Origin: Solirubrobacterales bacterium
Lineage (GTDB): Bacteria > Actinomycetota > Thermoleophilia > Solirubrobacterales > 70-9
Assembly (NCBI GenBank): GCA_017882505.1
Contig: JADGPJ010000012.1
Location: 1 to 46,824, forward strand
DNA length: 46,824 bases
Reading direction: 5' to 3'
The stretch's first letter is position 1. The number at the start of each line of letters is the position of its first letter. This document shows, in pieces, positions 1 through 3,633 of this stretch. Position numbers and translations under genes: made by a program. A model generated the notes under the pieces. The model worked only from the letters and a program-made list of their open reading frames with translations. It searched no databases and was not told where the DNA came from.

Positions 1-44
1 CCCACCGAGTCGGGACGCACGGGCCCCGCAAAGACCTTCACCAT
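1..44 (-). CDS. start-proximal fragment of an unidentified protein
   Basis: Reading the minus strand from 44, an ATG opens a frame that runs off the left edge after 14 codons (MVKVFAGPVRPDSV). A strong Shine-Dalgarno AGGAGGT lies 8 nt before the ATG (complement of about 53-59), which is why I believe the start is real. The fragment is too short to identify. It lies just outside the IS66 element's left end, and it reads away from the element. Confidence 0.4.
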   Translation of the reverse strand, partial: MVKVFAGPVRPDSV

Positions 45-69
45 GTGAGTGACCTCCTGATGTCAGGCC

Positions 70-89
70 GCGGCTGCCGAATCAGCCGC
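70..89. repeat. inverted repeat upstream of the left-edge CDS
   Basis: GCGGCTG at 70-76 and CAGCCGC at 83-89 form a perfect 7-bp stem around a 6-nt loop. It lies between the left-edge CDS start and the IS66 end, so it could be an operator or a terminator remnant. No T-run follows it. Confidence 0.3.
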
Positions 90-99
90 TATTTGCCTG

Positions 100-1755: not shown

Positions 1756-1796
1756 GGGGCTATAGCTCAGCTGGCAGAGCGCCTGGATCGCACCCA
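1756..1796 (+). pseudogene. tRNA-Ala(CGC) 5' half, truncated in the anticodon stem
   Basis: Bases 1756-1796 fold as the 5' half of a tRNA: acceptor strand GGGGCTA, D stem GCTC/GAGC, anticodon 5' stem CCTGG, loop ATCGCAC (anticodon CGC, alanine), then only CCA of the expected CCAGG 3' stem. From 1797 the sequence departs, and no variable loop, T arm or TAGCCCC acceptor strand follows. It cannot make a tRNA. It starts 7 nt after the IS66 right end and faces the tRNA-Phe half at 1980-2019. Confidence 0.75.
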
Positions 1797-1979
1797 ACCT
1801 CCTGGCTAGCTGAGATGCCTGTCGGACCCCGCCCCAGAGCCATTGGGTCACGATTGGGTCACGGCCCCCACCCATGCCCAGTCAGCCACGGATCGCGAGC
1901 AGCCGACAGAGGGCAAAGCAGGCTTATTTGCAGGCATTCCCGTCGGGCCGCCCAATTCGTATCGAACAACGGCGACCCA
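1797..1979. other. non-coding joint between two tRNA halves (possible element remnant)
   Basis: This 183-bp stretch has no credible gene. It contains the 11-bp tandem repeat and a dispersed inverted pair ATGCCTG/CAGGCAT (about 1815-1821 and 1931-1937). Next to the tRNA-Phe break, the minus strand keeps a GTTCGAT heptamer typical of a T loop, with no matching T stem or acceptor strand. It looks like the relic of an integrated element or a deletion joint. Confidence 0.4.
1842..1863 (+). repeat. perfect tandem 11-bp direct repeat
   Basis: ATTGGGTCACG occurs twice head to tail (1842-1852 and 1853-1863) inside the DNA joining the two tRNA halves. Short direct repeats beside tRNA attachment sites are often arm-type integrase sites, but no integrase gene is present, so the role is unproven. 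Confidence 0.6.
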
Positions 1980-2019
1980 GATTTTCAGTCGTGTGCTCTA
2001 CCAACTGAGCTACCTCGCC
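1980..2019 (-). pseudogene. tRNA-Phe(GAA) 5' half, truncated in the anticodon stem
   Basis: On the minus strand from 2019 the acceptor strand GGCGAGG, TA, GCTC, D loop AGTTGGTA, GAGC, A, stem CACGA and loop CTGAAAA (anticodon GAA, phenylalanine) are all canonical. Then TC of the expected TCGTG follows and the match stops. The acceptor complement CCTCGCC is not found downstream. The break is at nearly the same tRNA position (about nt 40) as in the opposing tRNA-Ala fragment. Confidence 0.8.
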
Positions 2020-2079: not shown

Positions 2080-3633
2080 TTGCATTGGGGGGTGGCCTGG
2101 ACTCGTGCAGCGGTGGCGCTGGTGGTCGTGGGGGCGGTGGCGCTCGTGGTGGTCTCGGGGGGCTCGGACGCGGATCCGCGGACGCCGCCGGCCCTGCCGG
2201 GAATGCCGGCGCCGTTTCTCGGCACCGCGGTGGCAGGCGGCGGCGGGATGACGGCCGCGATCGACGCCTACGGGGACGTCGTCGACCTGCGGGCGCCGGG
2301 GCCTGCGGGCCGCGAGCTGATCGATAACCCGGCCGACCGCCAGGCGGCCGGCACCGTCTCCCCCGAGACCGGGATCGTGCCGCGGGTGAGCATCGACCTC
2401 GGCCCGGCGCAGGCGCTCTGGCGCGCCGACTCGGTATCGCAGCGCTACCTGCCGGGGACGAACGTGGTGCGAACCGTCGCTCGATTCGGCCGGGTCAGGG
2501 CCGAGGTGACCGCCGCCGCTTCGAGCGGTGCGCTGGCGGAGACCCTGGAGGTGAGGGGGCCGATGGAGCGAGCGGTCGTACCGACCTTCGACGCCAACGT
2601 GATCGATCGGTCGGGGGCTCGGTGCCGGCAGGGTCGCCGGCCGGGCGAGGTGACGATCGTCTGCTCCGCCGGCAGTTCGATCATCGGCGAAGACTCGAAC
2701 CCCGTCGCGATCGATGTCGACGAGATCATCCGCGCCAGCGAGGCCGCCGGGCGTGGCTGGATCGCCCGTGCGCGGCCGCTGGGATCCGCCGCCCCCGCCT
2801 GGGCGAGGCGAATGTACGCGCGCTCGCTGCTAACCCTGCGGGCGCTGACCGACCGCCGCACCGGCGCCGTCGCGGCGGGCGCCCGCGACGGCTGGGCCTA
2901 CGTCTGGCCTCGCGACGCCGGCGCCGCCGCCCTCGCCTTGTCGGCCTCCGGGTACCCGGCGCAGGCGCGAAGCGTCGCGCGGTTCCTGCTCGGCCTCAAC
3001 CTCGACGCGGCCGCGCGCTTCGGCGGCACCGGCGCGCCGGTGCCCGGGCGCGGCCCCCAGGGCGACGCCGCCGGCTGGGCCGCGGTTGCCGCCCGCGCCA
3101 CCGGGCTCCCCGCCCCCGAGAACGAACCATCCTGGCGCAATCGCCCCGATTACCAAGAGAGCTCCCCAGGCGACTACCTCGCCAACGCCATCGCCTCGAG
3201 CACCGTCAATGAGCCGTTCGAGACCGCGCGGGGGCTGGTGCGGCGGGCAGGCGACCCAGGCTCGGGGCTCGACTCGGCGGCCGCCTGGGCGGTGCGGCCG
3301 TTTCCCCAGCCCACCCTCTTCCCGGCGGCCCGCAGGACCCTCCTCGACCTGACCGCCAAGCAGACCCGCTTCGGGATCACCCCCAGCGAACGGTGGCCCG
3401 GCGTCGATCCCTGGTCCGCCCCGACCGCTTGGACCGCCTGGAGCCTCGCCGCCCTCGGCGAGCGCCGCCAGGCGCTGCGCCTTCTCGCCGATCTGCGACG
3501 TGCCGCGACTCCGGCCGGCGCGATTCCCGAGCGCGTCGACGCCAACACCGGCATCCCCCGCTCCACCACCCCGCTGGCCTGGTCGCACGCCTTCGCGATC
3601 CTCGCCCTGCGCCGACTCTGGCCCGGAACCTAG
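2080..3633 (+). CDS. GH15-family glucoamylase-like protein, exported or membrane-anchored
   Basis: A 517-aa protein with an N-terminal hydrophobic segment (about residues 9-26) that would export or anchor it. The second half carries glycoside hydrolase family 15 features: DGWAYVWPRDAGAAAL, the W-x-RD substrate-site signature of the (alpha/alpha)6 barrel, then repeated helices, DPWSAPTAWTAWSL, and a late IPERVD like the family's catalytic-base region. The likely role is removal of glucose from alpha-glucans or related oligosaccharides outside the membrane; the substrate is unknown. The start is uncertain: TTG 2080 follows GGAGGG at 2061 by 13 nt, and GTG 2092 is an alternative. It converges with the methyltransferase. 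Confidence 0.8.
   Translation: MHWGVAWTRAAVALVVVGAVALVVVSGGSDADPRTPPALPGMPAPFLGTAVAGGGGMTAAIDAYGDVVDLRAPGPAGRELIDNPADRQAAGTVSPETGIVPRVSIDLGPAQALWRADSVSQRYLPGTNVVRTVARFGRVRAEVTAAASSGALAETLEVRGPMERAVVPTFDANVIDRSGARCRQGRRPGEVTIVCSAGSSIIGEDSNPVAIDVDEIIRASEAAGRGWIARARPLGSAAPAWARRMYARSLLTLRALTDRRTGAVAAGARDGWAYVWPRDAGAAALALSASGYPAQARSVARFLLGLNLDAAARFGGTGAPVPGRGPQGDAAGWAAVAARATGLPAPENEPSWRNRPDYQESSPGDYLANAIASSTVNEPFETARGLVRRAGDPGSGLDSAAAWAVRPFPQPTLFPAARRTLLDLTAKQTRFGITPSERWPGVDPWSAPTAWTAWSLAALGERRQALRLLADLRRAATPAGAIPERVDANTGIPRSTTPLAWSHAFAILALRRLWPGT

What the first reader, a model, noticed from the sequence alone, without database searches (positions are those of the whole stretch)
1756..2019. Two convergent tRNA genes, both cut at the same anticodon-stem position
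Seen: tRNA-Ala(CGC) on plus and tRNA-Phe(GAA) on minus each keep a perfect 5' half to about nt 40, and both 3' halves are replaced by one 183-bp segment with a tandem 11-bp repeat. Known: tyrosine integrases often recombine in tRNA anticodon or T loops, but they normally leave the tRNA whole. Inference: a deletion or element excision whose ends both fell in anticodon stems, or an element class that cuts there. An assembly joint is the dull alternative.
Basis: partly seen in the sequence, partly recalled or inferred. Interest (0 to 1): 0.6.

Follow-up and report, generated by a model that had tools for sequence, protein, structure and literature searches.

The report
Mobile element splitting a tRNA-Phe gene
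One of the two half tRNA genes is the edge of a mobile DNA element that cut this bacterium's only known phenylalanine tRNA gene in two at the anticodon loop; relatives show that such elements, at least one loaded with anti-phage defence genes, bring their own replacement tRNA, whereas the origin of the second (alanine) half gene stays unresolved.

Summary
The Phe side is explained. It is attL of a tyrosine-integrase element inserted in the anticodon loop (9-bp core CTGAAAATC); 124-127 bp from the core lies the paired arm site found at five other Solirubrobacterales att sites. The missing Phe 3' half is in another contig of the same genome (C127) behind a matching P arm; joined, the halves give a perfect tRNA-Phe identical to four relatives. 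Neither junction rebuilds a tRNA. In relative G148 a single contig holds the whole arrangement: 5' half, integrase, divergent complete tRNA-Phe, CBASS and AbiE genes, 3' half (12.3 kb). This is the logic of tRNA-dependent lysogeny (mBio 2024), here in a defence island, not a phage. In G000 the replacement tRNA-Phe and integrase were not found (IS66 and IS21 interrupt the element; contigs end). The Ala half, next to an IS66, is not explained: an intact Ala(CGC) gene exists at its native locus; it may be debris of a second such insertion or a rearrangement.

The parts
1980..2019 (-). tRNA-Phe(GAA) nt 1-40, host 5' half (left behind at attL)
   Evidence: identical to intact relatives
1980..1988 (-). 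9-bp common core CTGAAAATC (nt 32-40, anticodon loop), shared by attL (window) and attR (C127)
1839..1979 (-). P' arm of the element; only a weak trace of a tRNA 3' half
   Evidence: same layout as five other att sites; translated homology with the attL regions of G068 and G066 begins at 1838/1839; residual T-arm similarity reached by 34 of 2000 shuffles
1842..1863 (+). tandem arm-type integrase sites (ATTGGGTCACG x2), 125 bp from the core
   Evidence: same motif as an inverted pair in the C127 P arm
1927..1938 (-). AATGCCTGCAAA motif, also in the C127 P arm
1797..1838 (.). 42 bp of unknown origin between the Ala half and the Phe P' arm; starts ACCTCCTGG, the reverse complement of tRNA-Ala nt 39-47
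1756..1796 (+). tRNA-Ala(CGC) nt 1-41, extra 5' half; intact copy at the native locus in C16
99..1750 (+). IS66-family insertion sequence (inverted repeats at its ends, transposase 201-1685) next to the Ala half; no target-site duplication seen
2080..3633 (+). GH15-like gene: native chromosomal flank of tRNA-Phe

Best explanation
The Phe half plus about 1839-1979 is the attL junction of a tyrosine-integrase integrative element. The integrase exchanged strands in the tRNA-Phe anticodon loop, with a common core of only about 9 bp. The element does not bring a working 3' half, so integration breaks the gene: 5' half at attL (window), 3' half at attR (contig C127). By analogy with G148 and G011, where the only complete tRNA-Phe found is a divergent copy beside an integrase of this family, the element supplies its own tRNA-Phe, so the host depends on it. 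Shown here: attL, attR, the perfect empty site, the arm sites, and the complete arrangement in G148. Inferred: that the G000 element carries or carried integrase and tRNA-Phe (not in the assembly). The Ala half and IS66 occupy the place where the integrase gene should lie and come from a later rearrangement or a second element.
For: Joining window 5' half and C127 3' half gives a perfect tRNA-Phe, identical to G001, G002, G009, G010; attL and attR alone give none. The same arm motif occurs at both ends, tandem in P' and as an inverted pair in P. Core-to-tandem distance 124-127 bp, period 11-12, in six att sites; in G148 the tandem is 111 bp from the core. Same split state in G011 (C247/C170) and G066 (C12, with a stem-matching 3' half in C147), each pair joining to a perfect tRNA-Phe. 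G148: 5' half, integrase, complete tRNA-Phe with another anticodon stem, 3' half on one contig, no other complete tRNA-Phe found. The integrases of G011, G148, G066, G067 and G068 form one family, 48-61% identical.
Against: No integrase of this family except a pseudogene at tRNA-Asn, and no complete tRNA-Phe, was found in the G000 assembly, so rescue is not shown for this genome. attL and attR lie on different contigs; element length unknown. C127's downstream flank was not shown to be the native one. The Ala half does not follow from this explanation.
Confidence: 0.88

Rival explanations
1. A canonical, tRNA-restoring Phe island whose element-borne 3' half decayed after integration, the function being taken over by another tRNA-Phe.
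For: Canonical relatives with a full 3' half exist (G067, G068); G066's attL has a clearly recognisable decayed 3' half (0 of 2000 shuffles); the window has a weaker trace (34 of 2000).
Against: The attL of G011 and G148 shows no usable 3' half and a complete divergent tRNA-Phe lies beside the integrase; decay of an essential gene needs a replacement first, which is the same dependence.
Confidence: 0.25
2. The Ala half is attL of a second, tRNA-Ala(CGC)-directed element, fused to the Phe element by a deletion; both 5' halves end at the right border of a 9-10-bp core starting at nt 32.
For: tRNA-Ala(CGC) is an island hotspot in the genus: free 3' halves, many starting at nt 32 or a few bases upstream, in several genomes. 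The cut lies one nucleotide from the Phe cut.
Against: No Ala 3' half partner elsewhere in G000; intact Ala at the native locus; no arm sites assignable to it.
Confidence: 0.35
3. The Ala half was brought in with IS66 or by a fold-back or inversion (the joint starts with the reverse complement of tRNA-Ala nt 39-47), or this one joint is an assembly chimera.
For: IS66 ends 5 bp before nt 1 and lacks a target-site duplication; 9-bp palindromic joint; window 1-98 is a repeat at three contig ends.
Against: The cut at the core border would then be coincidence; no read-level evidence is available.
Confidence: 0.4
4. Both halves are an assembly artefact.
For: Fragmented assembly (127 contigs).
Against: Phe attL and attR share arms and have the geometry seen in independent assemblies.
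Confidence: 0.04

Closest known systems
tRNA-dependent lysogeny of actinobacteriophages (Fionnbharth, LeBron, Gaia; Guerrero-Bustamante & Hatfull 2024, PMC10865867)
   Same: tyrosine integrase with paired arm sites; 8-17-bp core; host tRNA gene not rebuilt; element-borne cognate tRNA (seen in G148 and G011)
   Different: its table lists tRNA-Lys, Ile2 and Leu as targets of this mode, not Phe; the G148 element is a 12.3-kb defence island without recognised phage genes; the P0001-like integrase has no match in the phage collection; dependence not tested by experiment
Rhizobium phages vTRX32-1-like (PMC8631192)
   Same: 12-bp core in tRNA-Leu; the phage tRNA-Leu lacks the core and is presumed to replace the interrupted gene
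   Different: phages of alphaproteobacteria
Canonical tDNA islands (Islander, PMC4383910)
   Same: anticodon-loop attachment by tyrosine integrases; tandem islands with displaced fragments occur in this genus
   Different: canonical islands restore the tRNA; here it is not restored

Membership tests
tRNA-dependent integration (tRNA-dependent lysogeny) | short (about 10 bp) core between attP and a tRNA attB | tested here: met
   9 bp CTGAAAATC between window attL and C127 attR; about 10 bp in G148
tRNA-dependent integration (tRNA-dependent lysogeny) | functional tRNA not reconstructed at attL or attR | tested here: met
   ARAGORN finds none in attL or attR of G000, one in the joined empty site; same for the attL of G148, G011 and G066 (in G148 ARAGORN reports a 71-nt call over attR)
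tRNA-dependent integration (tRNA-dependent lysogeny) | element encodes a tRNA of the disrupted isotype | tested here: inconclusive
   G000: interior not assembled. G148: met on one contig. G011: met, if C247 and C170 belong to one element
tRNA-dependent integration (tRNA-dependent lysogeny) | element tRNA required for stable integration | not testable with these tools
   needs deletion of the element tRNA
tRNA-dependent integration (tRNA-dependent lysogeny) | tyrosine integrase with arm-type sites flanking the core | tested here: inconclusive
   arm-like sites present at both ends in G000, but its integrase gene was not found; integrase present in G148, G011, G066
Canonical tRNA-restoring genomic island | attL holds a complete tRNA gene | tested here: not met
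Temperate phage | phage structural genes in the element | tested here: inconclusive
   G148: nine element proteins scanned; defence, integrase and other non-phage domains only; G000 interior unknown

The most novel reading that the evidence does not exclude
Defence-carrying genomic islands of Solirubrobacterales use tRNA-dependent integration: they break the single-copy essential tRNA-Phe gene and carry an att-resistant replacement, which makes the defence island hard to lose, a kind of addiction without toxin; the Ala half would be a second target of the same strategy next to it.
Probability: 0.5. Interest if true: 0.65.

Novelty: new variant of a known kind. Interest (0 to 1): 0.52.

Why it matters
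The strategy was described for temperate phages in 2024. Finding it with tRNA-Phe in another actinobacterial lineage, and in an island that carries CBASS and AbiE (G148), suggests that elements can tie a host to a defence cargo by holding an essential tRNA. It also explains 5' tRNA halves, which island finders that need an intact tRNA next to its fragment can miss.

Tried and rejected
Intron-split tRNA: no tRNA found in the window, and the Phe 3' half is in another contig behind element arm sites. Elements that carry the 5' half of the tRNA in attP: rejected for Phe, because the C127 attR has no 5' half. The 183-bp segment as a repeat: no other copy in the genome or in 40 relatives. Viral contigs: no exact match of the arm tandem or of the cut 5' half. 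Phage collection: no match to the integrase. G036 and G014 short matches to the 183 bp: taken as chance or unassignable.

Full report
OBSERVATION. Confirmed. tRNA-Ala(CGC) nt 1-41 at 1756-1796(+), tRNA-Phe(GAA) nt 1-40 at 2019-1980(-), 183 bp between, tandem 11-bp repeat at 1842-1863. No tRNA is called in the window (Rfam 18 bits, below the 29-bit cut-off).

WHOLE GENOME. The window is contig C25 of a 2.63-Mb, 127-contig genome (93% complete); the named relatives reached through its integrase family are mostly Solirubrobacterales and Patulibacter. Among the tRNA genes found by Rfam and typed with ARAGORN none is an intact Phe. An intact Ala(CGC) lies in C16 with an upstream flank similar to that of G009 and G010. 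A free Phe 3' half lies in C127:18456-18498(-), another, diverged, in C45:3815-3856(-).

PHE HALF = attL. In G001, G002, G009 and G010 an intact tRNA-Phe lies just upstream of the same GH15-like gene. Window 5' half + C127 3' half, joined at CTGAAAATC, give a perfect tRNA-Phe, identical over the whole gene to those four; the two junctions alone give none. The C127 side carries an inverted pair of the window's 11-mer (one copy with one mismatch) and the AATGCCTGCAAA motif before the core; the window carries the 11-mer in tandem and the same motif after the core. In six att sites (G000, G066, G011 twice, G067, G068) the tandem pair starts 124-127 bp from the core; in G148 at 111 bp. Inference: these are arm-type integrase sites of a lambda-like att system.

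RELATIVES. G067 and G068 have the canonical state: complete tRNA-Phe at attL and an integrase of this family in the same contig. G014, a one-contig genome, has a complete tRNA-Phe and a free 3' half 96 kb apart. G066 has a Phe 5' half with decayed 3' half next to an integrase, and a stem-matching 3' half in C147. G011 has the 5' half in C247 and, in C170, integrase, a complete divergent tRNA-Phe, a P arm and the stem-matching 3' half. G148 shows all on one contig: 5' half 69841-69878(-), integrase, complete tRNA-Phe 67927-67999(+), 3' half 57459-57506(-). In G148 and G011 the complete tRNA-Phe has another anticodon stem than the split gene, which would protect it from the element's own integrase (inference). 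No other complete tRNA-Phe was found in either genome. Cargo of G148: AbiEi/AbiEii, a CBASS set (cyclase, TRIP13, SAVED-TIR effector, CapP-like peptidase), an ion-channel protein and the integrase.

MECHANISM. Shown: split gene, short core, arm-like sites, complete arrangement in G148. Inferred: the tRNA is essential, the element's copy replaces it, and loss of the element other than by precise excision is lethal. For G000 the replacement is not in the assembly; IS66 (window) and IS21 (C127) interrupt both known ends.

ALA HALF. Unexplained. It lies 5 bp from an IS66 end; the adjoining 42 bp match nothing found and begin with the reverse complement of Ala nt 39-47. Translated homology to other Phe attL sites starts at 1838/1839. 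tRNA-Ala(CGC) is an island hotspot in the genus, so debris of a second insertion is plausible, but no partner 3' half was found in G000.

KNOWN. The closest is tRNA-dependent lysogeny (PMC10865867); a Rhizobium phage group is similar (PMC8631192); classical islands restore the tRNA (PMC4383910). A study of Sinorhizobium prophages and islands reports islands that bring tRNA genes and compares this with tRNA-dependent lysogeny (PMC11476347), so the idea is not wholly confined to phages. Differences here: target tRNA-Phe, another lineage, a defence island with both halves and the replacement on one contig. The mBio paper does not use the word island; searches of one library do not prove absence elsewhere.

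Noticed in passing
L256 1960-14379 (G148:C20): 12.3-kb tRNA-Phe-splitting element with AbiE, CBASS (cyclase, TRIP13, SAVED-TIR, CapP-like), integrase and its own tRNA-Phe.
   Followed up: partly
L046 155-250 (G000:C19): tRNA-Glu(TTC)-like gene (ARAGORN says Pro or SeC) with about 20 extra nucleotides, apparently a hairpin, in the D loop; real insertion or assembly effect unknown.
   Followed up: no
L117 3524-3565 and 3815-3856 (G000:C45): 3' halves of tRNA-Gly(GCC) and tRNA-Phe 250 bp apart on the same strand: two island ends of different targets close together.
   Followed up: partly
L155 (G008:C21), L154 (G006:C7) and others: tRNA-Ala(CGC) is a hotspot with several free 3' halves per contig, many starting at nt 22-32.
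   Followed up: partly
L152 1733-1761 and 1951-1975 (G010:C34): A degenerate tRNA-Ala(CGC) 5' fragment about 190 bp from a tRNA-Gly 3' half: another Ala 5' fragment near an att site.
   Followed up: partly
L112 2058-2110 (G011:C170): A tRNA-Glu(TTC)-like 3' piece directly beyond the tandem arm sites of a Phe att site, a place comparable to that of the Ala half in the window.
   Followed up: partly
L158 3498-4292 (G000:C108): Pseudogene of the P0001-like integrase next to tRNA-Asn.
   Followed up: no
window 1-98: Repeat shared with the ends of contigs C50 and C14, which diverge at 93-99.
   Followed up: partly
L186 1849 (G066:C62): The inverted-repeat end of an IS66 relative like the window's lies directly behind a Phe 3' half in another genome.
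   Followed up: no
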